From an uncultured bacterium (GTDB lineage Bacteria > Bacteroidota > Bacteroidia > Bacteroidales > Bacteroidaceae), in assembly GCA_905216095.1 (NCBI GenBank), contig CAJMSQ010000002.1:60425-124424 (forward strand): DNA of 64,000 bases. Reading direction: 5' to 3'. Both the position numbers and the translations under genes were made by a program. Positions 3,170 through 53,045 of the stretch are shown here, in pieces. Each line of letters begins with the position of its first letter. Position 1 is the stretch's first letter. Below the pieces are notes generated by a model that was given only the letters and a program-made list of their open reading frames with translations, did not search any database and was not told where the DNA came from.

Positions 3170-3425
3170 GATTTAACTTTTCTTGCTTTTGGGCAAAAAA
3201 AGTATTATCTTTGCATTACGGAAACATAAGGGCGGCTTCGGCTGCCCTTTTTTTCGTGTAAAAAAGCCCTTTCCCGGGAAAAACTGTCCCTATGACGGGA
3301 AAAACTACATGCCATGTAGGAGAACGCAGATGGCATGTAGTTTTTCCCGGCCCTACATGTAGTCGGAAACAGCAGGGAAATACGCCGTCCCGAATGTGAG
3401 CAAAGGTTAAATATGTTAATGTCGG
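3170..3425 (+). repeat. 255-bp intergenic promoter-hairpin-palindrome element, copy 1
   Basis: The left end resembles ATTTTAACACTTCTTGC and carries a promoter with -7 box TATCTTTG-like TATTATCTTTG at 3203-3213. About 16 nt further on is a terminator-like hairpin at 3229-3254 (arms AGGGCGGC and GCTGCCCT, UUCG loop, then seven T). A GC-rich linker follows, then a very large inverted repeat: 3296-3315 pairs perfectly with 3330-3349 (20 bp, 14-nt loop). It contains the palindrome CTACATG-C-CATGTAG at 3305-3319. A separate CTACATGTAG lies at 3353-3362. The tail is GTTAAATATGTTAATGTCGG. The unit lies between the receptor gene and the Fur-family gene and has no credible coding sequence. Confidence 0.85.
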
Positions 3426-3542
3426 ATGCGTCCGGCCCGTGTTCCCCGGCTTCGTGTCCCGGTCATACTGTTTCCCTCACCGCCCGTCCGGCCATGCGGC
3501 AAGGGACGGAGGAAAATTTTTCTCAAGAAAAATACCATTTTG

Positions 3543-3602
3543 TTTGGAGGAAAAAAATTCTTTCCTTATATTTGCACTGTAATTAAATATGTAACGATTA
3601 CA
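3543..3602 (+). promoter_or_regulatory. Promoter and candidate PerR/Fur operator of the regulator-rubrerythrin pair
   Basis: TTTG at 3543-3546, 20 bases, then TATATTTG at 3567-3574 fit the Bacteroidota housekeeping promoter. Downstream, at 3590-3602, is the perfect inverted repeat TGTAA-CGA-TTACA, ending 10 bases before the ATG of the Fur-family gene. Its position downstream of the start site suits autoregulation. That the encoded regulator binds it is inference. Confidence 0.6.
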
Positions 3603-3612
3603 AATAAGTAAG

Positions 3613-4044
3613 ATGAACAATCAAGAAACCATAGACTATCTCGTACAACACGGCATCAAGCCCTCCGTACAGCGCATGGCCGTAATGGAATATCTGTTGT
3701 CCCATCATACACATCCCACGGCGGACGAGATACATAGTGCGCTCACGGCACGTATCCCCACACTCTCGAAAACGACCGTCTACAACACGCTCCGCCTGCT
3801 CGTGGACAACGGCGCCGCAACGCAGCTGACCATCGACGAACGCAACGTCTGCTTCGACGCGGAAGCCCGGCCCCACGCCCACTTCCTGTGCAACTGTTGC
3901 GGAAAGGTGTACGACCTGCCGCTGCGTCAGGTCGATATCGACGCGGCCGCCGAGATACCCGAGTCGTTCCGTACGGAGAGCGCCGCCCTCTATTACCGTG
4001 GGAAATGCGCCGCCTGCACCCGGGCGGAATCACACCGGCAATAA
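3613..4044 (+). CDS. Fur/PerR-family transcriptional regulator
   Basis: A 143-residue protein of typical Fur-family length. The N-terminal half (about residues 1-80) is the winged-helix DNA-binding domain, with the recognition-helix signature LSKTTVYNTLRLL. The C-terminal half has the structural zinc pairs CNCCGKVYD and CAAC and a His-containing metal-sensing stretch (RPHAHFLC). The next gene, 37 bp downstream, is a rubrerythrin, and an NRAMP metal transporter follows, so a PerR-like peroxide sensor controlling oxidant defence is more likely than a classical iron Fur. I did not resolve the residues that separate PerR from Fur, so no symbol is given. It probably regulates itself through the palindrome just upstream of its start. 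Confidence 0.88.
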   Translation: MNNQETIDYLVQHGIKPSVQRMAVMEYLLSHHTHPTADEIHSALTARIPTLSKTTVYNTLRLLVDNGAATQLTIDERNVCFDAEARPHAHFLCNCCGKVYDLPLRQVDIDAAAEIPESFRTESAALYYRGKCAACTRAESHRQ

Positions 4045-4080
4045 CAAACACATATCATTAACAATCTAAATTCCATCATT

Positions 4081-4635
4081 ATGAAAAAGAAATTTATCTG
4101 TACTGTCTGCGGTTACATTCACGAAGGTAACGAAGCTCCCGAGAAGTGCCCGATGTGCGGTGTCCCCGCTTCCAAGTTCAAAGAACTGACCGGTGACGAG
4201 GGTCTCTCGTTCGTGGCCGAGCACGAGGTAGGCGTTGCCAAGGGATGCGACGACGAGATGATCAAAGACCTGAACAACCACTTCATGGGCGAATGTACCG
4301 AAGTCGGAATGTATCTTGCCATGAGCCGTCAGGCCGACCGCGAAGGCTATCCCGAAATTGCCGAAGCCTTCAAGCGTTATGCCTGGGAAGAGGCAGAACA
4401 CGCTTCCAAGTTCGCCGAACTCCTCGGCGACTGCGTATGGGACACGAAGACCAACCTCGAGAAGCGCATGAACGCAGAGAGCGGTGCCTGCGAGGACAAG
4501 GCACGTATCGCCAAGCGCGCCAAGGAACTGAACCTCGATGCCATACATGACACCGTTCACGAGATGGCCCGCGACGAAGCACGTCACGGCCGCGGTTTCG
4601 AAGGCCTCTACAAGCGTTACTTTGCCAAGAAGTAA
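4081..4635 (+). CDS. Rubrerythrin, reverse domain order (rubredoxin-like N-terminus)
   Basis: 184 residues. The N-terminus is a rubredoxin-type iron site with two CxxC knuckles ([20 protein letters not shown]). A ferritin-like di-iron helical bundle follows from about residue 40, with carboxylate/His motifs EEAEH and DEARH. Classical rubrerythrins carry the rubredoxin domain at the C-terminus; the swapped order is that of the so-called reverse rubrerythrins of anaerobes, which reduce hydrogen peroxide with electrons from NAD(P)H. It sits directly behind the Fur/PerR-type regulator with no terminator visible between them, so the two are probably co-transcribed and peroxide-induced. Likely cytoplasmic; no signal peptide. 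Confidence 0.93.
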
Positions 4636-6306: not shown

Positions 6307-7575
6307 ATGAGCAAAGGTAAAGTAGATGCGCTCTTAGGCATCGTCTTCGGCGACGAAGGCAAAGGTAAAGTAGTCGATTACTTCACCCCGAAGTACGACG
6401 TAGTGGCCCGCTTCGCCGGAGGTCCCAATGCGGGACACACCATCATCTTCGAAGGAAAGAAATTCGTACTCCGGTCGATTCCTTCGGGCATCTTCGACGA
6501 GAACAAGATAAACATCATCGGCAACGGATGCGTCATAGCGCCCGACCTCTTCATGGCCGAGGCGCGTGAGCTCGAGGCCGCCGGCTATTCCCTCACGGAA
6601 CGCCTGCACATCAGCCGTCGCGCGCACCTCATCCTGCCCACACACCGTGTGCTGGACCGCGCCTACGAGGCGGCGAAAGGCAAGTCGAAGGTGGGAACGA
6701 CGGGCAAGGGCATCGGGCCCACGTACAGCGACAAGGCGGCCCGCATCGGTCTGCGCGTGGGCGACATCCTGAACGATTTCGAGGCCAAGTACAACGCGCT
6801 GAAAGCCCGCCACGAACAGATTCTCCGCGACCTCGGCTTCACGGACTACGACATAGCCGAAGAGGAGAAGCGCTGGATGGAAGGCGTGGAGTACATGAAG
6901 AAGTTCCACCTGACCGATACCGAAATCGAAATCAACGGCTACCTGGCCGAAGGCAAGAGCGTGCTGGCCGAGGGTGCCCAGGGCTCGTTGCTCGACATAG
7001 ACCACGGCACTTATCCTTTCGTCTCGTCGTCGAGCACCACGAGCGGAGGCGTCTGTACCGGACTGGGTGTCGCACCCAACAGGATTGACCGCATCTTCGG
7101 CATATTCAAGGCATACAGCACCCGCGTGGGCAGCGGACCTTTCCCCGTGGAACTCTTTGACGAGACGGGCGAGGAAATCCGTCGCATAGGCCACGAGTAC
7201 GGTGCCGTGACGGGACGCAACCGCAGATGCGGCTGGGTGGACCTTGTCGCCCTGAAATACGCCATCATGATTAACGGTGTGACCGACCTGGTGATGATGA
7301 AGGGTGACGTACTCGACGGTTTCGACACCATAAAAGTATGCACCGCTTACGAAAAGGACGGACAGATTACCGAAACCATGCCTTACGACACCGAAGGCTG
7401 GACCGCCGTCTACGAAGAACTGCCCGGCTGGAAGACGCCCCTGAGCGGGTTGCGCGCGGAAGCCGACTTCCCGCAGGCGTTCAAGGACTACATCGCCTAT
7501 CTTGAGCAGAAACTCGCTACGCCGATAAGCATCGTGAGTGTCAGCCCCGACCGCGACGCGACCATCATACGGTAA
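6307..7575 (+). CDS. purA: Adenylosuccinate synthetase
   Basis: 422 residues, the usual length. It catalyses the GTP-dependent joining of IMP and aspartate to adenylosuccinate, the first committed step to AMP, in the cytoplasm. Visible signatures are the N-terminal phosphate-binding loop GDEGKGK (about residues 14-20), GPNAGHT, the IMP-binding GTTGKGIGPTYSDKAAR and the GTP/guanine region near the C-terminus. It stands alone: its own promoter lies upstream, and a strong intrinsic terminator follows 48 bases after the stop. Confidence 0.97.
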   Translation: MSKGKVDALLGIVFGDEGKGKVVDYFTPKYDVVARFAGGPNAGHTIIFEGKKFVLRSIPSGIFDENKINIIGNGCVIAPDLFMAEARELEAAGYSLTERLHISRRAHLILPTHRVLDRAYEAAKGKSKVGTTGKGIGPTYSDKAARIGLRVGDILNDFEAKYNALKARHEQILRDLGFTDYDIAEEEKRWMEGVEYMKKFHLTDTEIEINGYLAEGKSVLAEGAQGSLLDIDHGTYPFVSSSSTTSGGVCTGLGVAPNRIDRIFGIFKAYSTRVGSGPFPVELFDETGEEIRRIGHEYGAVTGRNRRCGWVDLVALKYAIMINGVTDLVMMKGDVLDGFDTIKVCTAYEKDGQITETMPYDTEGWTAVYEELPGWKTPLSGLRAEADFPQAFKDYIAYLEQKLATPISIVSVSPDRDATIIR

Positions 7576-7701: not shown

Positions 7702-7957
7702 ATTTTAACACAATTTGCTTTTCGGCGGAAAATGTATTATCTTTGTACAGCAAAAGTGCGGGGGCGGCCTGAAACCGCCCCTTTTTCGTGTCCGGAGGCC
7801 CGTTTTCGGGCGGAACTGTCCCTATGATGGAAATTTTTTGCAGCCATGTAGTTTTTCCTACATGGCATGTAGTGTTTCCCGTCCCTGCATGTAAAGAAAA
7901 ATAAGCGGGGGATAGCGTCTCCCAAAAGTGTAGAAAGGTTAAAAATGTTAATGTCCG
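7702..7957 (+). repeat. 255-bp intergenic promoter-hairpin-palindrome element, copy 2
   Basis: The left end is ATTTTAACACAATTTGC with -7 box TATCTTTG at 7738-7745. The short hairpin follows at 7761-7786 (arms GGGGCGG/CCGCCCC, five T). After the linker comes CTACATG-G-CATGTAG at 7858-7872. An alternative 9-bp hairpin is GCCATGTAG (7843-7851) with CTACATGGC (7858-7866). The tail is GTTAAAAATGTTAATGTC. It sits between the purA terminator and the ABC-transporter promoter, in the same direction as both. Confidence 0.85.
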
Positions 7958-10194: not shown

Positions 10195-10196
10195 AC

Positions 10197-10976: not shown

Positions 10977-11058
10977 GGGCACGGGGAATACGCCTCGTGC
11001 CCTGAATGGTTACTAAAGATTCCGCTTTCGCGGGGACAGCTTGTCCTGTCCCCTTTTT
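10977..11058 (+). terminator. Tandem hairpins ending the ABC operon
   Basis: Two hairpins lie between the convergent DUF2807 and tamL genes. The first (10977-11002) has a GGGCACG/CGTGCCC core but no T tract. The second (11032-11058) is a classic plus-strand terminator: GGGGACAG, 6-nt loop, CTGTCCCC, TTTTT. Confidence 0.8.
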
Positions 11059-11115
11059 CGTCGGTTCCGGAAGGCTTTCGGCCGATTCCGGCTGCGGTAC
11101 GGCCGTCACCGGCCC

Positions 11116-13632
11116 TTAGAAAGGATAGCCTATGGCGAAGTGATAGGCCAGTCCGTCCTTGATGCGCGGTATGTTGTACCAGCCCGCTTTTCCTGTCTCG
11201 TAAGGTGCGTGGAGCGCGAAGCCCACATCGAAGCGCAGGACGAGGAAGTCGAGGTCGTAGCGCAGGCCGAGTCCTGTGCCTACGGCGATGTGCTTCAGCG
11301 TCTCTGCCGAAAATTTGCCGCCGGGGCGGCCGGCATCCTCACGCAGCAGCCATACATTGCCCGCGTCAAGGAACACGGCTCCGTGCAGGCTGCCGAAAAG
11401 GCGCGCGCGAAGTTCGGCATTGGCTTCCAGCCGGACATCTCCCGTCTGGTCTATGTAGGCGTACTTCGAATTTCCGCTGCGGTAGCTGCCCGGACCTATG
11501 GTGCGCACGGTGAAGGCACGTATGCTGTTGGCGCCGCCTACGTAGAACTGGTCGGCGTATGGCGCACGGGTACTGTTCCCATAGCTGTAGATGACGCCGG
11601 CAAAGAGCCTCGTGGCGACATTGAAGCGCGAGTTGATGCGGAAGGTCTCATGTGCTTCGGCCGTGAACTTCAGAAATTGCGCGAAGGGGCTGCCGAACAA
11701 CGCTTTGTTCTGTTCCGAGAATTTGCGTCCCGTGGCCGCGTAAATTCCCGATACGGCATTTCCCGCCTCCTTGGCCGTCAGCTGCAGCCAGACGGGGTTG
11801 CGGTGTCCGGCGGCCGAGTTGTAGGTGAATGTATATGATATGGACGGCACGAACTGGTCGCGCATGGAGACGTATAGCGCGGGGTTGGCGTTCATTATCG
11901 AGTCGAAAGTGCCCGTTTTGTGGAACATCTTGTCGAATTCAAGGCTGAAAAGCGTCAGTTCGTGCTCGGCCGTGCGGCGTTTGTGCCATTTATATGTTGC
12001 GCTGAGGCCGAACGTGACCATGTTGAAGAAGCCTGCTCGGTTTCTCCAGTCGGCATTGAGCGCGAAAGTGGTGGATGCGGGGAAGCGGGTGTGGCGTCGG
12101 CTGATGCCGGGGAAGACAAAGCGCGGAAAGTCAAAGGCCAGCTCCGTACCAAGCTCGTAGGAGTTCAGCAAAGAATTGCCTCCGTGGCCCGCACCCGTCT
12201 GCCACTCGTGCGAACCGAATATCTTGAACGACACTTTCTCGCCGCCTCCGAACGCGTTGCGCTTGGCTACGCCGAAGGCAATGCCCGGTCCGACCTGCTG
12301 GTTGCTTTTCAGCGTGGCGTTCATCTCGAAGTAGCTGTCATAAAGCTTGTCCATCACGGCATTCACATATATATCCAGTGTGTCGCAGGAGGCGCTTGTG
12401 TCGCGCGGCACGTAGTTTACGTCCATCTGGCTGAAGACTCCGATGGTGTTCAACTTTTCTAAGGTCATGTTGCTGTGGCTCAGTCGGAAGAGTTCGCCCT
12501 TCCGGTGGCTGATGGCGTGCCGCCACATGCCCGCACGCAGGGGCAATTTCTCTCCGGAATACTCGTAGAAGTAATTGCGTCGGCGGATGGACTTGTCCGG
12601 AACGTCATCTTCCGTGCGCTTGATGCTGACGTGCGTGTTCCCGATATACCATTGGTGGCGCACACGTGCCGGCCGATCGGGCGCGGGGCGTACTTGTAGC
12701 TGGACCTTCCCGCGGCGCATGACGGTGTCGGCGCGGAATGTGGTGTACGGAGCCGCGTAGTAGTAATAACCGTTCTCGCGGAAAAGTTTTTCTATGCGCG
12801 TTTGTTCGCCGGCTAAGTTCACGACACTGAAGGCGTCGCCCGACTTGAGCAGCCGTTCATGGCTGGTCGCGCGCAGCAGGCTGTCGGCCCGTGCCGGAAA
12901 GTCAAGGTAGGCGATGGAGTCGAACCTATGTACGGGACCCGCATATACGTCATAGGCAATTTTAGCTTTGCGGGGATTTTTGCGCGGCAGTATCCTGTGC
13001 TCCACTTTCCCGCTGAAATATCCGTAGTTGTGCAGGGTGTTCGTGGCTACCCGTGCACGCATTTCGGGGCTGACCGTGGAAACGAGGACGGGGGTGGCTG
13101 CAAAGTTTTTGAAAATCCATTTCCCGAGCCCTTTCCGGTGATTTACCAGGCCGTTGTAGAGCCATAGGCCGACGGGGAAGGGGGAACGGATGGACGAAGA
13201 GCCGAACAACGCGTTGTTGGGTGCATAGGCCAGTACGGCTTCCACCTCTTCCTGTGCCGTCTCGAATGCTTCCCGGTCAGCCTCGTTCTGCGCTTTGAGT
13301 CGTTTACGTTCCTCTTTGGTGAGGTCTTCCGCCTTGTGTGACAGTTGTTCCTCTATGCCGGCGGTGCCTTTGCCGCTCAGCAGGTCGTCTACCGCGTTGA
13401 TGGCCTCTCCGATGGACGTGATGACGCCGGCGGAGTCCCTTTTCGTTGTTTTTTTCAGCTTCAGAGGCGTTCCTTCATAGCTGATTTTGTCGATACCCAC
13501 GTAGAGTTGTTCGTCTTCCGGCAGGTTGCTCGTTGTGGAGCAGGAGGCGGCCAGCGCGGCGAGGAGCAGAATTGCCGCTATCCCTATGGTCGTTCGCATC
13601 GGGTGGTTGGTATGTGGGGGGAGAAGTATCAT
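11116..13632 (-). CDS. tamL: TamL: lipidated TamA/BamA-type outer-membrane barrel
   Basis: 838 residues from the first ATG, which overlaps the tamB stop by 4 bp (ATGA); a second ATG at 13599 gives a more standard 20-residue signal. Either way the signal ends in LAALAASC, a lipobox, so the protein is a lipoprotein, unlike proteobacterial TamA. The N-terminal ~350 residues are POTRA-like, and the C-terminal ~350 form an Omp85-type barrel (for example the FYVGGANSIRAF segment and the C-terminal YHFAIGYPF). Linked downstream of tamB, it fits the Bacteroidota TamL protein, thought to work with TamB in outer-membrane biogenesis and lipid transport. Confidence 0.88.
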   Translation of the reverse strand: MILLPPHTNHPMRTTIGIAAILLLAALAASCSTTSNLPEDEQLYVGIDKISYEGTPLKLKKTTKRDSAGVITSIGEAINAVDDLLSGKGTAGIEEQLSHKAEDLTKEERKRLKAQNEADREAFETAQEEVEAVLAYAPNNALFGSSSIRSPFPVGLWLYNGLVNHRKGLGKWIFKNFAATPVLVSTVSPEMRARVATNTLHNYGYFSGKVEHRILPRKNPRKAKIAYDVYAGPVHRFDSIAYLDFPARADSLLRATSHERLLKSGDAFSVVNLAGEQTRIEKLFRENGYYYYAAPYTTFRADTVMRRGKVQLQVRPAPDRPARVRHQWYIGNTHVSIKRTEDDVPDKSIRRRNYFYEYSGEKLPLRAGMWRHAISHRKGELFRLSHSNMTLEKLNTIGVFSQMDVNYVPRDTSASCDTLDIYVNAVMDKLYDSYFEMNATLKSNQQVGPGIAFGVAKRNAFGGGEKVSFKIFGSHEWQTGAGHGGNSLLNSYELGTELAFDFPRFVFPGISRRHTRFPASTTFALNADWRNRAGFFNMVTFGLSATYKWHKRRTAEHELTLFSLEFDKMFHKTGTFDSIMNANPALYVSMRDQFVPSISYTFTYNSAAGHRNPVWLQLTAKEAGNAVSGIYAATGRKFSEQNKALFGSPFAQFLKFTAEAHETFRINSRFNVATRLFAGVIYSYGNSTRAPYADQFYVGGANSIRAFTVRTIGPGSYRSGNSKYAYIDQTGDVRLEANAELRARLFGSLHGAVFLDAGNVWLLREDAGRPGGKFSAETLKHIAVGTGLGLRYDLDFLVLRFDVGFALHAPYETGKAGWYNIPRIKDGLAYHFAIGYPF

Positions 13633-18518: not shown

Positions 18519-18773
18519 ATTTTAACACTTCTTGCTTTCGGGCCGAAAATGTATTATCTTTGTACAGCGGAAGTGCGGAGGCGGGGTTTTCCCGCCTTTT
18601 TTCGTGCGATATGGCCGGCTTTCGCGGAAAAATACCCCGAAGGAAAGAGAAACTACATGGCTCGTGGTTTTTCCTACATGCCATGTAGTGTTTCCTGTCC
18701 CTGCATGTAGGGAAAAACAAAAGGGGCGTCGGTGTTCCGAAAAAGTGTAGAAAAGTTAAAAATGTTAATGTCG
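18519..18773 (+). repeat. 255-bp intergenic promoter-hairpin-palindrome element, copy 3
   Basis: The left end is ATTTTAACACTTCTTGC with TATCTTTG at 18555-18562. The short hairpin is at 18579-18602 (GGCGGG/CCCGCC, six T). CTACATG-C-CATGTAG is at 18674-18688, with further CATGTAG half-sites around it, and the tail GTTAAAAATGTTAATGTCG closes the unit. A short fragment resembling the left end (GGGATTTTAACATTTA) precedes it at about 18493-18508. The unit lies between the tamB promoter and the TlpA-like gene. Confidence 0.85.
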
Positions 18774-26010: not shown

Positions 26011-26265
26011 ATTTTAACACTTCTTGCTTTTGGCCGAAAAATGTATTATCTTTGTATTGCGAAAGCAGGAAGGACGGCCAAAGCCGCCCTTTATTCGTAT
26101 CCATAGGCCCGTTCCGGGGAGAAACCGGCCCTATGAAAGGAAAAACTACATGGCATGTACGAACGACTACAAGCCATGTAGTTATTTTTGTCCCTACATG
26201 TCGGGGAAACTACAAGCCATGTACGCCGCCCCGAAAGTGAGTGAAAGTTAAAAATGTTAATGTCG
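26011..26265 (+). repeat. 255-bp intergenic promoter-hairpin-palindrome element, copy 4
   Basis: The left end is ATTTTAACACTTCTTGC with TATCTTTG at 26047-26054. The short hairpin is at 26071-26090 (AGG-CGGC/GCCG-CCT with one A/C mismatch) and its T run is weak. CTACATGGCATGTAC is at 26146-26160. An 11-bp hairpin is AACTACATGGC (26144-26154) with GCCATGTAGTT (26173-26183). The tail GTTAAAAATGTTAATGTCG ends 16 bases before the hisIE stop, in convergent orientation. Confidence 0.85.
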
Positions 26266-36070: not shown

Positions 36071-36325
36071 ATTTTAACACTTCTTGCATTTCGTCGGAAA
36101 ATGTATTATCTTTGCAACAGGAAACAGGGCAGACCGCACAGGTTTGCCCTGTTTTCGTGTATTCCGGCCGGTATCCGGTCCGTTTTTCCCCTCGAAAAAG
36201 GATTTCCTACATGCCTTGTAGGAGAATTTACAAGGCATGTAGGAAAAATTACAAAGCATGTACGAAAAACTACAAGCCATGTACGCGGCGCCGAAAGTGA
36301 GCGAAAGTTAAAAATGTTAATGTCG
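36071..36325 (+). repeat. 255-bp intergenic promoter-hairpin-palindrome element, copy 5
   Basis: The left end is ATTTTAACACTTCTTGC with TATCTTTG at 36107-36114. The short hairpin at 36124-36155 has a 12-bp stem (core ACAGGGCA/TGCCCTGT), four T. The large hairpin is 18 bp perfect: 36203-36220 with 36229-36246, 8-nt loop; two more TACAxxxCATGTA motifs follow. The tail is GTTAAAAATGTTAATGTCG. It lies between the nuclease gene (minus) and the S46 promoter, opposite in direction to both. Confidence 0.85.
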
Positions 36326-36344: not shown

Positions 36345-37208
36345 TCATTGCCACAGTTTGAGCGAATAGGCGGACTCGAGTGCGGCTTCCTGTCTGTCGG
36401 GCAGGTTTACGAAGAAGTCTATGCCCGTGAGTTCCTCTATTTCGTCTACGGACCGCGCCGCCCGGTCCATGTCCTGGCGACCGGAACGGTTGGCGTAGTA
36501 GAAGCCGATGGCCTTCTCGCGGCCGCTGTTCAGGCAGAGCACAACCTTGAAGAAGCCGTCGGGTACGGTGATGCGCAGGGTGCGGCCGATTTTCTTCCGG
36601 CGTTTGTCCTTGTAGACCGGTCCGCAGACGATGTAGACCGCCCCTTCGCGGGCGGCCCAGCGGCGGCAGGCTTTCTCGAGCGTGGCCCACGCTCCGCTGT
36701 TCAGGGCATGGTTCTGCGGACATATGTTGCTCATGTAAAAACATTCGGACATGGCGCGCGAACTCCACTTCATGTCGGCGGCAGGCGCCATGTGGCCGCG
36801 GTCATATCCCGAACCGGTATACTCGGATGTCGTGACCCGGTGCGGTTCCGGCACATCCGGGTCGGGCAGGAAGTCGTTCGCTCGGGGCAGCGTGCCTTCC
36901 GTCTCGGCCTTGGTCAGTTCCCACGCCACCCAGTTGGGTGCGTTGTGCTCGCGGTTGTAGGACAGGGTGTATCCGGTGTGGCGGATGATGCGTTCGGGCG
37001 TGCCTTTCATGCGTCCCGGCAGCTCGATGGCGCGGCCGGAGCCGGGAGCGGCGGCGGTTACGTCCGTCCTGCCGGCTGCGCCGTCGGATTTTTCAGTCAT
37101 TTCCCCGCGGGCGGGCTTGTCCGTGCCGGCGTCGGGCAAAAAAGTAGCAGCCGACAATGCTGTGCCGGCTGCCGCTATCAGAGCGATTATCTTGTTCGTA
37201 AGTTTCAT
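36345..37208 (-). CDS. Secreted DNA/RNA non-specific endonuclease (NucA type)
   Basis: 287 residues. An N-terminal signal peptide (KIIALIAAAGTALSAA) and a ~40-residue low-complexity spacer precede the catalytic domain (about 75-287). The beta-beta-alpha-metal signature is YDRGHMAPAADMKWS, with the catalytic His after DRG, and NICPQNHALNSGAW supplies the metal-binding Asn. It cleaves DNA and RNA outside the cytoplasm, for nutrient scavenging or defence. It starts only 9 bases after the leucine-operon synthase gene, the place usually held by leuB in related genomes, and may be read with the leu operon. Confidence 0.93.
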   Translation of the reverse strand: MKLTNKIIALIAAAGTALSAATFLPDAGTDKPARGEMTEKSDGAAGRTDVTAAAPGSGRAIELPGRMKGTPERIIRHTGYTLSYNREHNAPNWVAWELTKAETEGTLPRANDFLPDPDVPEPHRVTTSEYTGSGYDRGHMAPAADMKWSSRAMSECFYMSNICPQNHALNSGAWATLEKACRRWAAREGAVYIVCGPVYKDKRRKKIGRTLRITVPDGFFKVVLCLNSGREKAIGFYYANRSGRQDMDRAARSVDEIEELTGIDFFVNLPDRQEAALESAYSLKLWQ

Positions 37209-40855: not shown

Positions 40856-41140
40856 TCAGACGAGCAAGGCGAAGGCCGTCACCGTGAGCGGCAGCCCCGC
40901 GATGGCCGCGACGATGCCTGTCTTGTGGAATCCCCGCCGGTAGTAATCGAGCGCCACAAAGAAGAGAATGACGGGCGAAAGCCATATCAGGTTGGCCAGG
41001 ACGAAGAGCAGAAAACGCAACACCGCGTAATCGCTTGTCCCGAGGGGCCTGACGGCGCCGAGCAGGTAGAAAGGTGCGGCCAGCAGCGGCAGGAGGCCGG
41101 TTCCCGCCAAGGCAATCAGCCATTTGGGCAGGTCTCTCAT
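40856..41140 (-). CDS. Small three-helix membrane protein in the leucine operon
   Basis: 94 residues starting [13 protein letters not shown]. Three hydrophobic segments: [40 protein letters not shown] and [20 protein letters not shown]. Its ATG overlaps the leuA stop by 4 bp (ATGA), so it is translationally coupled to leuA and lies in the leucine operon before leuC. No known domain recognised. The coupling and its retention between two biosynthetic genes suggest a real protein; a role in branched-chain amino-acid export or sensing would be guesswork. Confidence 0.75.
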
Positions 41141-42633
41141 TTGCGGAACTTGTTTATGCAGTCGATGTAGGCTTCCACGCTGGCGGCCACTATGTCTGTG
41201 TTCGCGCCGAAGCCGTAATAGCATTGTCCGGCGTGTTCTACCTGCATGTGGACCTTACCTACGTCGTCCGAACCGCGGTTGATGGCCTGTATGGTGAACT
41301 CCTTGAGCGTCATCTGCCGCTTGATGATTTGCTTGACGGCGTTGATGGCGGCATTGACCGGGCCGTTGCCTTCGGCCGCAGCCTGGAATTTTTCGCCGGC
41401 AATGTCGAGAATGACGGCTGCCACGGGCCTGATGCCGTGTCCGCTCGTGACTTGCAGGTAATCCAGCTTGATGCTGTGTGTGTTCGAGCGTTCCGCGCCG
41501 GCCAGGACCAGGATATCGTCGTCGGTGACTTCCTTTTTCTTGTCGGCCAGCTTGAGAAACTGTTCGTAGATGGCGTCAAGTTTTTCGTCGGCCGTCTCGA
41601 TGCCCAGTACCTCGAGCCTGTGTTTGAGCGCCGCCCTTCCCGAACGGGCTGTCAGTATGATGCTGTTGTCATCTATGCCGACATCTTTCGGGTTGATTAT
41701 TTCATAAGTCTCTACGTTCTTCAAGACGCCGTCCTGGTGTATTCCGCTGGAGTGGGCAAAGGCGTTGCGGCCGACGATGGCCTTGTTGGGCTGCACGGGC
41801 ATGTTCATGAGCGAGCTGATCATGCGGCTGGTGGCGGCAATCTTGTGCGTATTGATGTTGGTCTGTATGTCGAGGTCGTGGTGGCACTTGAGAATCATCG
41901 CTATCTCCTCTTCGCTGGTGTTTCCCGCGCGTTCCCCGATGCCGTTGATGGTGACTTCGACCTGGCGCGCGCCGTTGAGCACGCCTTCGAGGGTACATGC
42001 GGTGGCCATGCCGAGGTCATTGTGACAGTGGGTGGAGAGAATGGCGTTGTGGACGCCGTCCACGTGCTCCATGAGGTATTTTATTTTTTCGCCATACTCG
42101 CGCGGCAGGCAGTAGCCCGTGGTGTCGGGGATGTTCACGACGATCGCGCCGGCCTTGATGACGGCTTCGACCACGCGGGCCAGATATTCGTTGTCGGTGC
42201 GGCCGGCGTCTTCGGCGTAGAACTCCACGTCTTCGACGTAACGCTTGGCATATTTCACTGCCGCTACGGCCCGTTCGATGATTTCCTCACGTGTGGAGTT
42301 GAACTTGTAGCGTATGTGGCTGTCGCTCGTGCCTATACCCGTGTGTATGCGTTTGTGTTTGGCGTATTGCAGGGCTTCGGCGGCGCAGTCGATGTCTTTC
42401 TGCACCGCACGTGTCAGGGCGCAGATGGTGGGCCACGTCACCGCCTTCGAAATCTCTATGACGGAGTGGAAGTCGCCGGGGCTGGATATGGGGAAGCCGG
42501 CCTCGATGACGTCCACGCCAAGGACTTCGAGTTGCTTGGCCACTTGTATTTTTTCCACCGTGTTGAGTTGGCATCCCGGCACCTGCTCTCCGTCGCGCAG
42601 GGTTGTGTCGAAAATGAAAAGTCTGTCGCTCAT
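41137..42633 (-). CDS. leuA: 2-isopropylmalate synthase
   Basis: 498 residues from the ATG at 42633. It condenses 2-oxoisovalerate with acetyl-CoA, the committed step to leucine. Signatures: [30 protein letters not shown] (metal His-x-His), [14 protein letters not shown] and, at the C-terminus, the leucine feedback domain ([16 protein letters not shown]). First gene of the leu operon, behind a ~216-nt leader with attenuator-like structure. Confidence 0.97.
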
Positions 42634-42970: not shown

Positions 42971-43225
42971 CATTTTAACACTTCTTGCTTTTGGCGGAAA
43001 AATGTTGTATCTTTGTGTAGCAAAATGCGGAGGCTGGCCGAAACCGGCCTTTTTTAGTGTCCGGGAGGCCGTATTTCGGGAAAACCGGTCCTATGAAAGG
43101 CAAAACTACATGCCATCTGCTTTTTACTACATGGCTTGTAGTCGTTTCTATCCCTGTATGTAGGGAAAACTACCAGCCATGTACGCCGCTCCGAAAGTGA
43201 GTAAAAGTTAAAAATGTTAATGTCG
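42971..43225 (+). repeat. 255-bp intergenic promoter-hairpin-palindrome element, copy 6
   Basis: The left end is ATTTTAACACTTCTTGC with TATCTTTG at 43007-43014. The short hairpin is at 43030-43054 (GGCTGG/CCGGCC with one T-G pair, six T). The large hairpin ACTACATGCCAT/ATGGCTTGTAGT carries one mismatch. A CTGTATGTAGG motif follows, then the tail GTTAAAAATGTTAATGTCG. It lies between the leu promoter and the GH16 gene terminator. Confidence 0.85.
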
Positions 43226-43393: not shown

Positions 43394-46300
43394 TCAGGGC
43401 ACAAGCAACTTCTTGCCGTTCACGACGTAGATGCCGGTTTGAACGGGGACGGTTTCGGTGCCTTTCAGCTGCTTGGAGAAGACAAGGCGGCCTGCGAGGT
43501 CGTAGATGCGGGCCTCGACTGCGTTCGGGGACGACAGGCGGATGCAGCCCTTGCCGGCGGATGCGTCGAGCGTGCCTGCGGCTTCGGCCGACGAGATGCC
43601 GGTGACGAACTGCTGGTCGCCCATGCAGTAGTTCTGGCCGTCCTTCTGGTAAACGCGAACCCAGTCGAAACGGGTCTCGTACGTATGGGTGATGTCGGCG
43701 GGACGGGCCCATGCGCCGTTTCCTACGGACTGGTTCAGAATGATATAGAAAGTCTTGTCGTAAGGCCAAGCCCGCGGGTCGCTGAACTCGCCGTTGCGAT
43801 AGCGTCCTACTTCTTTGCCGTCAAGATACCAAATCATTTTTTCGGCATCCCACTCGAAACCATACGTATGGTAGCGGTCCATGGGACAGGACTCCTGAAA
43901 GGCTTTCATGGATTGGCGGTAGCCGGTGTGGAGCGTGTGGTAGGCGGTGTTCTGGCCGTCTATCTGTTCCCAAATGTCGATTTCGCCGTCGTTAGGCCAG
44001 CCCAAGGACTGATCGTCGGGCATGAGCCAGAACGCAGGGAAGTTTCCGGTGTGCGGGTTCGTCAGGATGCGGGCTTCTATCTTGCCGTACTGCCAGCCGA
44101 ACTTGTATCTGGTCTGTATGGCGCCCGTTATCATGTCGCCTTCATAGCGCGTGGGGTCGGGGTTCGGTATAGCGCGCGTCACGAGCTGGCCGTCCTGGAG
44201 AAATGCCACGCGCGGATCGTCGGCAATCCAGCGGTTCCATGTAGCTCCGTGGCGTTCGCTGCATCCCCACTTGCTTGCATCGGGCAGCGAACCGTCGGGT
44301 TCGTCGAACTCGTCGCTGAAGATGAGCGTGTACTCGGCATCGTCGCCTTGCTCAAAAGCTACGGACAGCATCACGTCGCCGTCGATGCTGTCGGCAGGCA
44401 GCGTGCAGGCGGCGGCGTCCACCTCGTATTCGCTCCATTGGCGGTTGCCGTGGATGAATTGCGGACCGTCAAAGTTGTGTCCGTGGCGGACCGTCATTTT
44501 TTCAGCCGTGTAGCCGGCGGCTATCGGGGTGGGAACGACGTCAAGCGCCTGGAAAACGGGCAGTGTCAGGGGCAGAGCCGTGTTTCCCGTACCGTTGATG
44601 CTTCCGTTGGCGGTGATGAGCGTCAGTTTGTGTTGGGCGTTGTGGACGTTGAGCAGGAAGTCCACGACATAACCTCCGTTATCGTTGATTTTGTTTCCCT
44701 CGTTTTCGTTCCAATGACCGGCAGGGTCGATGTTGTCCCAGTCTACCTTGAGACGAGCCCTGTATGTGCCGGCAGGAAGTACGGAAGGGATGGAAAACTC
44801 GGGCATGGAATTGACAGCAACACTGCCCGGCGTGCCACTGATTTCGGCTCCCAGACTGTTACGTCCCTGATAATAGGTATAAGAAAGGAGTTCGCTGTTT
44901 ACCTGCGGCGCACCTGCGGCATCAAGAGCCGTTGAGAAGTGTCCGTCGTTGTTCAGGTCCACGTAGAGATAAAGGTGCATGGCACGTCCCGTATAGTCTA
45001 CCGTCGTGGCCACGGCGTCGCCCGGCACGACAGACACCTGCTTGTGCGTCATGTCGCGGTAGACGTAGTTTGTCCCCTCGGTGTCGAGCGTGACGGTAGA
45101 GCTGCCGCCTTGTGTCGCCGCGAAAGTGAAACTGTTGAGGCGACGGTCGGTGCGCGTAACGGTCAGGTCGGTGGCAAAGTTAAGGGCATAATCGTCCTCG
45201 GACGGCGCGACGCCGGCATCTATAAAGTACGGTTCGATGACTACATCGCCGTCCATGTATTCTGCGGGTATGGTGTATTTGTTGTCACGGAAGAGATAAG
45301 CGGGGATAATCTCGTCTACGTATTGCGGTGTGCCGTGTACGAGGCTGTCTCCCGTGAGGTTGTATCCGTGACGTACCCGGATGTAGGAGAGTTCAAAGTT
45401 GTCGGAAGCCGGTTGGACGGCGATGGTGAACGGTTGGCCGAAGGGAACGGTGCGCGTCACCAGCTCCGTGCCGTCTTCGTTCAGCAGGTCGCCGTTGAGA
45501 CCGCCGACACGCGAAACGGAAATCTCGTCCGAGTGGATGTTCATGCGCACATCGACAATCATACCGCCGTTCTGCACGATGCTGTTGGTCGAGGTGTTGC
45601 GTCCGGCAGGGTCTACATTTCCCCAGTCCACCTTGAAGCGCATACGGTAAAAGCCGTTGGCCAAGTCGGAAGGCAGCCGGAAGGCGGGAGGATTGATGAA
45701 GTTGCGCGCATTGCCGCTGATTTTCGTTCCGTCACTCTTGTAGCCTTCCGTATTCTCGACAGTCTCGACATAGGAATAGGTCATGATGTCGCTACCCTCG
45801 GGGATGGTGTAGTCTTCGTTAAGGTCTGCCGTGAATTTGCCGTCGTTGCCGCGGTCCAGATATACATAACCGTTCATCCAGTTGGACGTGAACGAGAACG
45901 AGGGTGTCAGCGTCTCGCCTGCTTTGGCCGTGAAAGTCTTGCCGAGCAGGTCGCGGTAAATGTATTGCGGGTCGTTGCTGCCGACTGCAATGGTCTGGCT
46001 TCCGTCTGTCGAGCCGTTCAGCGCGATGGAGTTCAGGTAGTTTCCGCTTTTTCCCGAAACCTGCGTCGCTTCATAGTTCAAAGGATAGTCTCCGTATATG
46101 ACACGCGGCGTGGGCACGCTGTTTATCTCGATTTCGTCGATGTAGGCGGCGAAATCCTCCGTGCGGTTGTGCGGTGACTCGCATTCGGGAACGACTACAA
46201 GGCTTCTGATTTCAATTCCGCCGGCACCTTTTATGGCAAACACGGCGTCGCTCCATTTCCCGGGAGTGACTTTGGCGGTGGAAAGAACGCTGAACTGTTC

Positions 46301-46723
46301 CGTTTCGGCCGACTGGTCGGCGCGTTCCGTGCGCTTGCCGAGACCGATGAGCATCACGCGGCCTTCGGTCGGCTTGTTGATGAATACGTGGACGTATTTG
46401 ACGGTTGTGTTCAGCTCGAAAGGATTGGCCAGGTCTATGCGGGCGCCGAATCTGTTGCTTCCAAAGCGCGAGCACTGCACGGCAAGCATTTTTTCCGTCG
46501 CGTTAGGCGCAATTCCCAGTATTTCGTCTTCCTGGGTCAGCTCGTTGGCGATTACTTTCACGTTGCCTTGCAAGTCTCCCGTGCGGAAAGGCGACTCTTC
46601 CCAGCTGTCATAAACTCCGAGGCCGGTGTAGGAATCGTTTGTCTCGAAGCCGATGTGCAGTTGTGCCGCGCCCGAAAGCGGTAGCAGCAGCGTAGCTAAA
46701 CCTAAAAGTGTACTTCTGTTCAT
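43394..46723 (-). CDS. Multidomain secreted GH16 glucanase-like glycoside hydrolase
   Basis: 1109 residues. Signal peptide ends SGAAQ. About 20-210 is a beta-sandwich of unknown type. Then come two homologous ~250-residue modules (about 240-490 and 515-760), each with YxYRDxxxK and an aspartate-rich loop (LDRGNDGKF; VDLNNDGHF) like GEVED-type Ca-binding folds. About 790-1035 is the GH16 domain with catalytic GEIDIWEQ (Glu914 nucleophile, Asp916, Glu919 acid/base), the ExDxxE form of laminarinases. The last ~70 residues resemble a type IX sorting domain (ARIYDLAGRLV, then TGIYVVNGKKLLV). A beta-1,3-glucan is the likeliest substrate, unproven. Confidence 0.88.
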   Translation of the reverse strand: MNRSTLLGLATLLLPLSGAAQLHIGFETNDSYTGLGVYDSWEESPFRTGDLQGNVKVIANELTQEDEILGIAPNATEKMLAVQCSRFGSNRFGARIDLANPFELNTTVKYVHVFINKPTEGRVMLIGLGKRTERADQSAETEQFSVLSTAKVTPGKWSDAVFAIKGAGGIEIRSLVVVPECESPHNRTEDFAAYIDEIEINSVPTPRVIYGDYPLNYEATQVSGKSGNYLNSIALNGSTDGSQTIAVGSNDPQYIYRDLLGKTFTAKAGETLTPSFSFTSNWMNGYVYLDRGNDGKFTADLNEDYTIPEGSDIMTYSYVETVENTEGYKSDGTKISGNARNFINPPAFRLPSDLANGFYRMRFKVDWGNVDPAGRNTSTNSIVQNGGMIVDVRMNIHSDEISVSRVGGLNGDLLNEDGTELVTRTVPFGQPFTIAVQPASDNFELSYIRVRHGYNLTGDSLVHGTPQYVDEIIPAYLFRDNKYTIPAEYMDGDVVIEPYFIDAGVAPSEDDYALNFATDLTVTRTDRRLNSFTFAATQGGSSTVTLDTEGTNYVYRDMTHKQVSVVPGDAVATTVDYTGRAMHLYLYVDLNNDGHFSTALDAAGAPQVNSELLSYTYYQGRNSLGAEISGTPGSVAVNSMPEFSIPSVLPAGTYRARLKVDWDNIDPAGHWNENEGNKINDNGGYVVDFLLNVHNAQHKLTLITANGSINGTGNTALPLTLPVFQALDVVPTPIAAGYTAEKMTVRHGHNFDGPQFIHGNRQWSEYEVDAAACTLPADSIDGDVMLSVAFEQGDDAEYTLIFSDEFDEPDGSLPDASKWGCSERHGATWNRWIADDPRVAFLQDGQLVTRAIPNPDPTRYEGDMITGAIQTRYKFGWQYGKIEARILTNPHTGNFPAFWLMPDDQSLGWPNDGEIDIWEQIDGQNTAYHTLHTGYRQSMKAFQESCPMDRYHTYGFEWDAEKMIWYLDGKEVGRYRNGEFSDPRAWPYDKTFYIILNQSVGNGAWARPADITHTYETRFDWVRVYQKDGQNYCMGDQQFVTGISSAEAAGTLDASAGKGCIRLSSPNAVEARIYDLAGRLVFSKQLKGTETVPVQTGIYVVNGKKLLVP

Positions 46724-51081: not shown

Positions 51082-51089
51082 CAAATTTA
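51082..51089 (-). promoter_or_regulatory. -7 box of the outer-membrane protein-helicase unit
   Basis: TAAATTTG on the minus strand, about 29 bases before the ATG at 51053. The divergent symporter promoter lies about 110 bases away. Confidence 0.5.
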
Positions 51090-51201
51090 GGGAAAATATG
51101 GAAAACCGCCGCGGGCAATACTTTAATAAACGCTTATGCCGTGCGAATAAAACCTAAAAAGGCAAGGAAGGCGTGGAGAGCGGCTTTTCCCGCGGAGAAA
51201 C

Positions 51202-51232
51202 TTTGCCGTAACCAACCGTTGCCGTAACTTTG
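51202..51232 (+). promoter_or_regulatory. Promoter of the sodium/solute symporter gene
   Basis: TTTG at 51202-51205, 19 bases, TAACTTTG at 51225-51232; ATG 27 bases downstream. Confidence 0.6.
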
Positions 51233-51258
51233 CAGCCGCATAAAAGCATTCCGCAACG

Positions 51259-52782
51259 ATGAACACCCCGATTCTCATGGCGGCCACGCTGGCCGCCTAC
51301 TTCATACTTCTGGTCCTGCTGTCGCGCCGCACGGCAGGACGTACCGACAACGAGACTTTTTTTCGCGGCCGGCGAACTTCACCCTGGTGGATGGTGGGGT
51401 TCGGCATGATAGGCGCCAGCTTGTCGGGCGTGTCGTTCATCTCGGTGCCCGGATGGGTGGCTTCGACGGGCCTGACCTACCTGCAAATGTGCGCGGGGTT
51501 CTTTTTCGGTTACGTCGTCGTGGCATTCGTGCTGTTACCGGTCTATTACAAGTTGCGACTGACGAGCATCTACGATTATCTGAGCCTGCGTTTCGGGCGG
51601 AATACCCACCGCACGGGCGCGCTTTTCTTCATCCTGAGCAAACTGACCGGCGCTGCCGCCCGGCTTTATCTGGTCTGCCTGGTCATCCGGCAGTTCCTGT
51701 TTCCCGCCACGGGCGGCCGGGATTCCGTTGCCCTGTTCTCGTCCGACGGGCCTGCCGGTCTGCTGGCCGTGGCCGTCGTGGTGCTTGTGCTGATTTGGGC
51801 CTATACGCGTCGGGGCGGTATTTTCACGATAGTGCGTACCGACATGTTGCAGACGCTGTGCCTGTTGCTCGCGCTGGCGGTCATGACGGGAATGGTCGCC
51901 CGGCAGCTGGGGACGGACGCTGCGGGTATCGTCGATACGGTGCGCGGCTCGGGCATGACGGAAATGTTCTGTTGGGATGCGGGCAGCCGGCAAAACTTCT
52001 GGCGGCAGTTCCTGAGCGGCATTTTCATCGTCATCGTCATGACGGGGCTCGACCAGGACATGATGCAGAAGAACCTGACGTGCCGCAGCCTGCGCGACGC
52101 GCAAAAGAACATGTGCGCTTACGGCGCGTGCTTCCTGCCCGTGAACCTGTTGCTGCTGGTCTTCGGCATCCTGCTCTATGCCCTGTGCAGCGCTAAAGGC
52201 ATTACTCCGCCGGCCGACAGCGACCGGCTGCTGCCCATGCTCGTGGAAAGCGGCGCCATGGGCACGCTGGTGGTCATTCCCTTCAGCATAGGCATTGTGG
52301 CGGCGGCATTCTCGAGCGCGGACTCGGCCATCACGGCCCTTACCACCACCACGTGCATCGACCTGCTGGGCATTGAGCGGCGCACGGCCTTGTCGCCCGA
52401 ACGCTGCATCGCCATCCGTCGCCGCGTACACGTCGCCGTGTCGGTCGCCTTCCTGGTCTGCATCCTGCTGTTCCGCGTCATCAACGACACCAACGTCATC
52501 GACGCCATCTATATCATGGCCTCCTACACGTACGGCCCGCTGCTGGGGCTTTACGGGTTCGGGCTCTTCACGCGCCGGCGTCCGGCCGACGCATGGGTGC
52601 CCGTCATAGCCGTGGCCGCCCCCGTGACGTGCGCGCTGCTCGACCATTTCGCGCCCCTCTGGTGGGGATATACGTTCGGCTATGAACTGCTGATGCTCAA
52701 CGGTCTGCTCACGTTCGCCGGACTATGGGCCGTATCCGGACGCGAGGCCGGAGCCAGGACGGATGTCCGTCGGTCGTGCTGA
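51259..52782 (+). CDS. Sodium:solute symporter (SSS family)
   Basis: 507 residues, about 13 hydrophobic segments. Family features: an early unwound helix region (GMIGASLSGVSFISVPGW) with Ser/Gly-rich Na+ site, the LRFGRNTHRTGALFFILSK sodium-symporter signature region, and DQDMMQKNLTCRSLRDA, typical of the SSS group. Moves a solute into the cell with Na+. Bacteroidota carry many of these; the substrate (sugar, sialic acid, vitamin or amino acid) cannot be told. It stands alone with its own promoter and is followed by the inverted repeat copy 7. Confidence 0.92.
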   Translation: MNTPILMAATLAAYFILLVLLSRRTAGRTDNETFFRGRRTSPWWMVGFGMIGASLSGVSFISVPGWVASTGLTYLQMCAGFFFGYVVVAFVLLPVYYKLRLTSIYDYLSLRFGRNTHRTGALFFILSKLTGAAARLYLVCLVIRQFLFPATGGRDSVALFSSDGPAGLLAVAVVVLVLIWAYTRRGGIFTIVRTDMLQTLCLLLALAVMTGMVARQLGTDAAGIVDTVRGSGMTEMFCWDAGSRQNFWRQFLSGIFIVIVMTGLDQDMMQKNLTCRSLRDAQKNMCAYGACFLPVNLLLLVFGILLYALCSAKGITPPADSDRLLPMLVESGAMGTLVVIPFSIGIVAAAFSSADSAITALTTTTCIDLLGIERRTALSPERCIAIRRRVHVAVSVAFLVCILLFRVINDTNVIDAIYIMASYTYGPLLGLYGFGLFTRRRPADAWVPVIAVAAPVTCALLDHFAPLWWGYTFGYELLMLNGLLTFAGLWAVSGREAGARTDVRRSC

Positions 52783-52870
52783 TACGGGTGTTCGGGTATC
52801 TGTGTCGCGACCGCCTTGCGACAATGCTTTTCTTGCATTTGCCGGGGGCGTAGAGGCGGTGTACGACGGA

Positions 52871-53045
52871 CGCAATATTAACATTTTTAACTTTCACTTA
52901 CATTCGGCGATGCGTACATGGCTGATAGTTTGTCCTACATGCAGACCCGGGAAACACTACATGCCATGTAGTTCGTCCTACATGGCATGTACGAAATCGC
53001 ATCATAGGGACAGTTTCTCCCCGAAACGGACTTGCGGATACAATG
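52871..53045 (-). repeat. 255-bp element, inverted copy 7 without promoter
   Basis: On the minus strand the linker (GTTTCGGGGAGAAACTGTCC), the palindromes and the tail (GAAAGTTAAAAATGTTAAT) match the other copies. The large hairpin is perfect over 14 bp (52958-52971 with 52978-52991, 6-nt loop). A hairpin sits at the usual place (53046-53086), but the promoter half is replaced by the 3' end of the lipoprotein gene. It is therefore a partial copy. Confidence 0.8.

What the first reader, a model, noticed from the sequence alone, without database searches (positions are those of the whole stretch)
3170..53045. A family of fixed-length, ~255-bp intergenic elements with one shared architecture
Six full copies (3170, 7702, 18519, 26011, 36071, 42971) span 255-256 bp each although their internal sequences have diverged. 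All have, in order, left end ATTTTAACACTTCTTGC, a TATCTTTG-type promoter, a short hairpin, a conserved linker, a CTACATG/CATGTAG palindrome array and the tail GTTAAAAATGTTAATGTC. The ends resemble an imperfect inverted pair (ATTTTAACACTTC versus ATTTTTAACTTTC). This is either a MITE/REP-like mobile unit or a multi-copy regulatory RNA gene. I do not recognise it as a named family; no transposase or RAYT gene is in the window.
Basis: partly seen in the sequence, partly recalled or inferred. Interest (0 to 1): 0.92.

Follow-up and report, generated by a model that had tools for sequence, protein, structure and literature searches.

The report
Intergenic repeat with swapped central code
A Prevotella-like bacterium carries many copies of a 254-letter non-coding cassette (a promoter, an immediate stop signal and a ladder of units spaced 21 letters apart); related species keep the frame but use a different ladder sequence, and I found no description of it.

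Summary
Six full copies (253-254 bp, + strand) and a 5'-truncated seventh (52868-53043, - strand) lie between genes. The window's genome is not held, but two named relatives in one GTDB genus carry the cassette: Prevotellamassilia timonensis An873 (34 tail matches) and Prevotella sp. MGM2 (97). Five more genomes of that genus gave 1-6 copies. Samples of the family and order gave otherwise about chance-level hits.

Order is constant: left box, Bacteroidetes-type promoter, terminator-like hairpin, tandem units, GTTAA tail. The units are species-specific, yet their best repeat offset is 21 bp in all eight genome sets. In MGM2, promoter, hairpin stem, units and tail are 73-84% identical between copies; linkers are 45-48% identical with unchanged length. 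The window's palindromes show 34 changed pairs, none compensated. One site shared by two close species differs by one 21-bp unit, and its array has changed about seven times faster than its frame.

No longer version, fixed target duplication, Y1/RAYT link, phage, plasmid or Rfam match was found. Best reading: a new interspersed-repeat family of phased DNA-protein cassettes, spread by unknown means and then kept. Binding, transcription and function are inferred. A minisatellite-like or selfish origin remains possible.

The parts
3171..3423 (+). Copy 1 (253 bp; left box degenerate ATTTAACTTTTC; TATCTTTG 3206-3213; tail 3406-3423)
7702..7955 (+). Copy 2 (254 bp; TATCTTTG 7738-7745; tail 7938-7955), between purA (6307-7575 +) and an ABC transporter ATPase gene (8117 +)
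18519..18772 (+). Copy 3 (254 bp; TATCTTTG 18555-18562; tail 18755-18772), between a tamB-like gene (13629-18272 -) and a redoxin gene (18914 +)
26011..26264 (+). Copy 4 (254 bp), reference copy, between convergent aroC (24685-25767 +) and hisIE (26282-26881 -)
26047..26054 (+). TATCTTTG, -7 element of the predicted Bacteroidetes-type promoter in copy 4 (the consensus is recalled)
26069..26092 (+). Terminator-like hairpin of copy 4, T-rich stretch follows
   Evidence: z -2.45; six of six copies fold here. The consensus terminator scan did not list it.
26146..26224 (+). Unit array of copy 4: CTACATG/CATGTAG half-sites at 26146, 26167 and 26210, with CCCTACATGT between
26247..26264 (+). Tail GTTAAAAATGTTAATGTC of copy 4
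36071..36324 (+). Copy 5 (254 bp; TATCTTTG 36107-36114; four units at 21-bp pitch; tail 36307-36324), next to an S46 peptidase gene (33784-35958 -) and an endonuclease gene (36345-37208 -)
42972..43224 (+). Copy 6 (253 bp; TATCTTTG 43008-43015; tail 43207-43224), between leuA (41137-42633 -) and a GH16 gene (43394-46723 -)
52868..53043 (-). Copy 7, 5'-truncated: linker, unit array and tail only; promoter and hairpin missing

Best explanation
These are members of an undescribed family of non-coding, intergenic interspersed repeats of one Prevotella-like genus. Each full copy works as a DNA-level cassette: a promoter fires and is stopped within about 40 nt by its own intrinsic terminator. Downstream, two to four binding units at a 21-bp pitch (two helical turns, so on one face of the DNA) and GTTAA-type boxes at both ends hold a protein complex of set geometry. 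Shown: the parts, their order, narrow spacing, 21-bp pitch, block-wise conservation, species-specific units, one-unit gain or loss at a shared site. Inferred: that proteins bind the units and boxes, that the promoter is active, that the complex controls this promoter or marks or insulates the site, that copies spread by an unknown copying process, and that they are kept in place by selection.
For: Same order of parts in window, G001 and G002 and in copies of G240, G276, G721, G723 and G718. Best direct-repeat offset is 21 among offsets 12-33 in all 8 sets, 74 copies. Left box to TATNTTTG is 35 bp in 37 of 39 G002 copies examined; the other two lack the motif. Left box to tail is 246-249 bp in 32 of these 39 and 268-269 in 3. 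In 26 same-length copies: promoter block 0.80, hairpin stem 0.73, units 0.80, tail 0.84 identical; linkers 0.48 and 0.45. Between window, G001 and G002 interiors score 0.5-4.6 above shuffles (within species 24-59), promoter blocks 17-23, tails 11-14. 34 changed pairs in 19 palindromic units, 0 compensated. A site shared by G718 and G723: frame 8 of 235 mismatches, array 14 of 61 plus a 21-bp gap. In P. timonensis 22-bp arrays lie outside the elements, but the pitch inside is 21.
Against: No binding protein found; no expression data. 4 of 39 G002 copies have off-pattern lengths (222, 232, 233, 243). The copies examined are 39 of roughly 100 in G002, and selection in place is argued from that genome; many long-lived source copies could mimic it. 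One G002 pair is 95% identical and inverted and P. timonensis copies look recent (mean 0.85). Units are palindromic, direct, or direct plus inverted, odd for one conserved protein. 21- and 22-bp tandem duplications also occur outside elements, so the pitch may partly reflect how duplications arise. In G002 the hairpin shows no covariation beyond shuffles (0.854 paired; shuffles mean 0.829, highest 0.860).
Confidence: 0.47

Rival explanations
1. Selfish MITE-like element: the conserved blocks are what an unidentified transposase or copying enzyme needs; host function is nil.
For: High copy number, in gene gaps; no copy in 30 aroC and 30 purA 3' flanks of relatives; flanking genes rarely shared. 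Patchy in the genus: 5 changes needed, at least 3 (aroC) or 4 (purA) forced. P. timonensis copies are 85% identical and carry extra conserved flank. In MGM2 a gap of 240 bp has no copy where G718 and G723 have one. Ends resemble an imperfect inverted pair.
Against: No fixed-boundary target duplication in 35 G002 flank pairs, although a looser any-position test gave 3.77 against 3.17, sd 0.15. No longer version seen. Only 1 of 214 same-length G002 pairs is above 82% identical, so little recent copying there among the copies in hand, yet blocks stay conserved.
Confidence: 0.3
2. Minisatellite process: the arrays are tandem repeats that expand, shrink and homogenise by slippage with a preferred 21-22 bp step; the code change between species is drift and the pitch has no binding role.
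For: At the G718/G723 shared site the array differs by one unit and by 14 of 61 positions while the frame differs by 8 of 235; the same two loci differ by a 21-bp tandem duplication just outside the element. P. timonensis has 22-bp arrays next to elements, several with a GGTGCGCTCC unit like one inside some elements.
Against: In MGM2 the units are as conserved between copies (0.80) as the promoter block. Inside P. timonensis elements the pitch is 21, not 22. Free slippage should give widely varying unit numbers; lengths are narrow. Sharing of one unit by the copies of a genome needs more than local slippage.
Confidence: 0.1
3. Multi-copy small-RNA gene: the roughly 40-nt predicted transcript from promoter to terminator is the product.
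For: Promoter and hairpin are conserved. Multi-copy sRNAs such as FopS exist in Bacteroides (PMC11697453, passages read).
Against: The predicted RNA is a short leader plus a hairpin whose letters differ between species and between window copies. The array and tail, over half of the element, stay unexplained, and the array does not behave as RNA structure. No Rfam match.
Confidence: 0.08
4. REP/BIME-type repeat spread by a RAYT (Y1) transposase.
For: Palindromes, intergenic position, species-specific sequence.
Against: PF01797 not found in G002, G240, G718, G721 or G723 (draft genomes): 2 of 7 carriers have a match against 26 of 51 others. The unit is a 250-bp cassette, not a short palindrome.
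Confidence: 0.02
5. Portable transcription terminator or insulator placed at gene ends.
For: An intrinsic terminator is detected in 11 of 15 upstream gene-to-element stretches (2 of these 11 have one of their own before the element) against 2 of 60 element-free gene ends in the window and G002 loci; the stretches differ in length.
Against: The low baseline means most genes do without one. Of 12 right-hand cases 2 have their own and none of the other 10 gains one. Promoter and array are not explained. Copies also lie between divergent genes.
Confidence: 0.03

Closest known systems
BrickBuilt MITE of Porphyromonas gingivalis (PMC4596501, passages read)
   Same: Bacteroidales; intergenic; leader and tail around a tandem array of units of about 20 bp; promoter activity reported.
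   Different: BrickBuilt: 23-nt unit, ends like GAGACCTTTGCA shared with IS5-family elements, 84-991 nt long. Here: 21-bp pitch, unit sequence changes between species, TTTTAACA and GTTAA ends, narrow length.
Pneumococcal BOX elements (PMC3049150, passages read)
   Same: End modules around a variable number of central modules at many sites; proposed as regulatory and as parasitic.
   Different: In Streptococcus suis different end modules surround the same boxB; here the same ends surround different units. BOX is predicted to fold as RNA; boxB is longer (length recalled).
Correia elements of Neisseria (PMC10969869, passages read)
   Same: Short multi-copy element with promoters; IHF-binding sites are reported for MITEs of this kind (for Correia recalled).
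   Different: Terminal inverted repeats, RNase III cleavage there; no phased array and no built-in promoter-terminator unit (the last two recalled).
REP/RAYT system (PMC2817692, passages read)
   Same: Species-specific palindromic repeats in high copy number.
   Different: No Y1 transposase found in most carriers; the element is a long ordered cassette.
FopS sRNA family of Bacteroides (PMC11697453, passages read)
   Same: Multi-copy transcription units in the same bacterial family.
   Different: 12-15 copies per genome, conserved across Bacteroidaceae; here up to about 100 copies in few species and no conserved RNA sequence.

Membership tests
MITE | Short non-coding multi-copy intergenic element | tested here: met
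   (gene calls by my own codon model)
MITE | Terminal inverted repeats | tested here: inconclusive
   ATTTTAACACTTC against rc tail ATTTTTAACTTTC; the tail runs on for GTTAATGTC beyond it
MITE | Target site duplication | tested here: not met
   No boundary pair with clear enrichment in 35 G002 copies; a loose any-position test was above control; only G002 tested
MITE | Related autonomous transposon with the same ends | tested here: not met
   G001: of 28 left ends 24 pair with a listed tail and 4 lie at contig ends. G002 has 111 left ends; 20 that I judged unpaired were fetched: 8 at contig ends, 9 with a tail-like motif 232-248 bp on, 3 decayed or truncated. Other unpaired G002 ends and other genomes were not fetched.
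BrickBuilt MITE | GAGACCTTTGCA-like ends and 23-nt unit | tested here: not met
   Ends are TTTTAACA and GTTAA; offset 21 is best and 23 is not among the top four
REP/RAYT | RAYT (PF01797) gene in the carrier genome | tested here: not met
   no match in 5 of 7 carriers, including G002; draft genomes
Rfam families | Match at gathering score | tested here: not met
   whole window: only tRNA-His; copy 4 at E up to 1: one hit far below its cut-off
FopS sRNA | Shared sRNA sequence (R1 seed) | not tested
   FopS sequences were not compared; only passages of the paper were read
BOX elements | boxA, boxB, boxC sequences | not tested
   compared by described architecture only

The most novel reading that the evidence does not exclude
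A chromosome-wide set of helically phased DNA-protein nodes, seen only in one genus, in which the frame (promoter, terminator, end boxes, 21-bp pitch) is fixed while the recognition code of the units is replaced from species to species across the copies of a genome, implying a fast-evolving cognate DNA-binding protein and genome-wide turnover of its sites, like the fast-changing recognition codes known from eukaryotes.
Probability: 0.23. Interest if true: 0.9.

Novelty: new variant of a known kind. Interest (0 to 1): 0.72.

Why it matters
Small interspersed repeats are usually read as decaying transposon relics. Here copies in one genome keep promoter, hairpin, units and tail while the linkers between them drift without changing length, which suggests function at each site. 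The same frame with exchanged central code in related species makes a natural experiment: one could identify a partner protein, ask how a whole set of sites changes its code, and learn what about a hundred such nodes do for a bacterium's chromosome.

Tried and rejected
Autonomous version: of 28 left ends in G001, 24 pair with a tail and 4 lie at contig ends; 20 G002 left ends that I judged unpaired were fetched, 8 lay at contig ends and the other 12 showed tails or decay. Target duplications: none at a fixed boundary. REP/RAYT: disfavoured. Phage or plasmid carriage: copy 4 has no similar DNA in the phage or plasmid collections; tail patterns in viral contigs gave 3 matches without an element; unit-array patterns of three species gave 0. 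Known RNA: none. RNA-hairpin role of the palindromes: rejected (5 of the 34 changed pairs remain as G-U). Orthologous positions: gene order around aroC and purA is not kept in the genus, so no base-exact empty site could be lined up. Terminator-only function: low baseline makes it weak. Hairpin covariation in G002: not above shuffles.

They showed a site shared by G718 and G723 with a one-unit difference, and tandem duplications of 21-22 bp outside elements. I therefore added the minisatellite rival and lowered the main reading from 0.50 to 0.47, the novel case from 0.25 to 0.23, and the MITE, small-RNA and terminator rivals from 0.33 to 0.30, 0.10 to 0.08 and 0.05 to 0.03.

In print: searches for a description of this element or its host listed none that I recognised as it; one search listed 8 of 47 papers and 10 of 18. 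Searches looked for analogues. Only open-licence papers are held; of six papers I read passages only, of the rest the listing.
Full report
OBSERVATION. Counts against dinucleotide shuffles: left end 5 against 0.13, tail 7 against 0.02, palindrome 28 against 0.62. A profile of the six adds one 5'-truncated copy on the - strand, 53043-52868, E 1.6e-39. Genes beside them include an outer-membrane barrel, fur, purA, an ABC transporter, tamB-like, redoxin, aroC, hisIE, S46 peptidase, endonuclease, leuA, GH16 and a symporter.

ANATOMY. From left: ATTTTAACAC box; TTGC and TATCTTTG (the -33/-7 pattern of Bacteroidetes promoters, recalled); a hairpin followed by a T-rich stretch in all six copies, with different stem letters in each; a linker; CTACATG/CATGTAG half-sites; a second linker; GTTAAAAATGTTAATGTC. 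TATCTTTG to tail is 200 bp in five copies and 199 in one.

RELATIVES. The window's own genome is not held. An exact 21-base tail pattern over the GTDB species genomes gave 19 stretches, all in two genomes: 12 in Prevotellamassilia timonensis An873 (G001) and 7 in Prevotella sp. MGM2 (G002). With two mismatches G001 has 34 tail matches and G002 97, reversed-pattern control 0 in both. Not every tail match is a copy: L020 and L060 (G002) and L055 (G240) have no promoter or array before the tail. The two genomes share a GTDB genus of which 58 genomes were searched. A tail-plus-promoter pattern matched 11 of 58: G002 107, G001 26, G240 6, G723 4, G718 2, G276 1, G721 1, and four others (G084, G157, G692, G715) 1 each that I take as chance, the control giving 1 in each of two genomes; it missed at least one further copy in G723 (L151). 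Of 301 family genomes 32 had a tail match, but only G001 (33) and G002 (115) had more than three. Of 393 order genomes 24 matched and only G002 (66) had more than two. The composite pattern in 399 family genomes matched 16: G002 70, G240 5 and fourteen with 1, of which G276 is the copy already known, beside 9 genomes with control hits; G001 scored 0 because this version demanded TATCTTTG and G001 has TATATTTG. Diverged versions elsewhere may be missed. Window proteins are at best 90% (purA), 80% (aroC) and 70% (GH16) identical to genomes of this genus, so the window is probably an unsampled species in it or next to it.

SAME FRAME, DIFFERENT CODE. In G001 the array is made of TTTGCCTTCC units, in G002 of CCGTATTG/CCAAGTATT units, in G240 of GTAGTCCCAGGATTTTC, in G723 of CAATCCCAGGACTTG, and so on. 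In G276, G721, G723 and G718 the left box reads TGTTAA instead of TTTTAACA, and in two G240 copies the box lies 46 instead of 35 bp before TATNTTTG. I scored interiors between species against shuffles (up to 6 copies per genome): window-G001 4.6, window-G002 0.5, G001-G002 2.3, while within species they score 28.6, 59.3 and 23.7; promoter blocks between these three score 17.0-22.8 and tails 11.3-13.5. Against the second group (G240, G718, G276, G721, G723) the promoter block as cut hardly matches (0.5-4.7) and the tail does (6.5-13.1); some interiors inside that group are related (G718-G723 18.3, G718-G721 10.5, G240-G721 8.9, G721-G723 7.5). Despite the different letters the best repeat offset between 12 and 33 is 21 in every one of eight sets (window 6, G001 23, G002 30, G240 6, G718 2, G276 1, G721 1, G723 5 copies).

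SPACING AND CONSERVATION. Of 39 distinct full G002 copies in hand (of roughly 100), left box to tail is 248 bp in 26, 247 in 4, 246 and 249 in one each, 268-269 in three, and off-pattern at 222, 232, 233 and 243 in four. In six G240 copies the promoter-tail distance is 208-209 or 229-231, in five G723 copies 229-230 or 250-251: steps of one unit. Left box to promoter is 35 bp in 37 of 39 G002 copies. Among the 26 copies of 248 bp, mean identity without gaps is 0.68, range 0.53-0.82: promoter block 0.80, leader 0.70, hairpin stem 0.73, loop 0.36, T-run 0.84, units 0.80, tail 0.84, stretch before the tail 0.59, linkers 0.48 and 0.45. Linkers are homologous (0.48 in register, 0.35 one base out) and have kept their length. 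In the 30-copy set one pair, inverted and about 5 kb apart, is 95% identical and the next pair 81%. So most of these copies look old, and blocks that stay alike while linkers drift point to selection at each site. Many long-lived source copies could give the same picture, so this is an inference.

A SHARED SITE. G718 and G723 hold one copy at the same place (flanks align). Frame: 8 mismatches of 235 compared positions; left flank 18 of 199; right flank 4 of 179; array 14 of 61 plus a gap of exactly 21 bp. So one site is kept in two species while its array gains or loses a unit and changes about seven times faster than its frame. About 100 bp downstream, outside the element, the same two sequences differ by another 21-bp tandem duplication. 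In MGM2 the two genes that flank this copy (86% identical to the G718 protein and 55% to the G723 protein) stand 240 bp apart with no copy between them, and a copy lies beyond one of them instead.

DNA OR RNA. In the window's copies 19 palindromic units have 34 changed base pairs; none is restored by a change on both sides, 5 remain as G-U, and one half-site usually stays intact. This speaks for DNA half-sites. The promoter-proximal hairpin differs: all six window copies keep pairing with changed letters, as a terminator would; in G002 the stem is conserved and covariation is not above shuffles. A detectable intrinsic terminator is rare at element-free gene ends here, 2 of 60, but present in 11 of 15 gene-to-element stretches.

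MOBILITY. Copies lie in tandem, divergent and convergent gaps (gene calls by a simple codon model of mine). Comparing two genes on each side of 66 copies plus copy 7 gave 18 gene pairs between species, some only paralogue-like; in the two neighbourhoods that I worked through (window copy 6 with G240 L138, G001 L100 with G002 L131) the copies sit in different gaps, and in one (G001 L097, G721 L146) before the same gene. No copy lies in the 3' flank of aroC in 30 relatives or of purA in 30, a few of these flanks being short. Carriers are scattered on aroC and purA trees: 5 changes needed in each, at least 3 and 4 forced; 37 of 500 shuffles were as low for aroC and all 500 for purA. G001 copies look recent (mean identity 0.85), carry about 35 bp left and 37 bp right of extra conserved flank, and several have 22-bp minisatellite arrays nearby. 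No fixed target duplication, though an any-position test was above control. No longer version, phage or plasmid seen. No Y1 transposase in five of seven carriers.

MECHANISM. Shown: order, spacing, pitch, block-wise conservation, species-specific code, one-unit change at a shared site. Inferred: units at two-turn pitch put bound proteins on one face of the helix; end boxes and units together form a complex of set length; the promoter, predicted to stop after about 40 nt, is either what the complex controls or what keeps the site open. Because copies seem conserved one by one, the effect should be local. A partner should evolve quickly, since the unit letters are replaced between species; slippage within the array, as at the shared site, could supply the raw change. 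I give the family itself near certainty, function in place about one half, and this detailed mechanism less.

KNOWN RELATIVES. In kind it stands beside BOX, Correia and BrickBuilt elements (passages read) but does not match BrickBuilt by ends or pitch, was not compared by sequence with the other two, and fails the RAYT test. I therefore call it a new variant of a known kind.

Noticed in passing
L010 (Prevotella sp. MGM2): Two 20-bp-longer copies about 5 kb apart in inverted orientation are 95% identical, the one clear sign of recent copying among the MGM2 copies compared.
   Followed up: partly
L099, L100, L101, L102, L105, L116, L153 (P. timonensis): 22-bp minisatellite arrays with a GGTGCGCTCC-type unit lie in the non-coding flanks of elements; a similar unit also occurs inside some elements.
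   Followed up: partly
L097-L116, L152-L156 (P. timonensis): Copies carry a further conserved 35 bp on the left (TTTTCCACACCCAA) and 37 bp on the right (CAAAATTGTTGG), not seen in MGM2 or the window.
   Followed up: partly
L143 and L149, about 100 bp downstream of the tail: A 21-bp tandem duplication in G718 against a single copy in G723, outside the element, in what looks like the next gene's leader.
   Followed up: no
L187-L189, L192-L195, L206 (MGM2 contig ends): 8 of 20 fetched left ends lie at contig ends, so the repeats break the draft assembly and copy counts may be low.
   Followed up: no
window 11030-11132: Weak profile hit (E 0.015), a GC-rich hairpin with TTTTTCGT, probably an ordinary terminator.
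   Followed up: no
window about 18497, upstream of copy 3: A second TTTTAACAT box lies 23 bp before the left box of copy 3.
   Followed up: no
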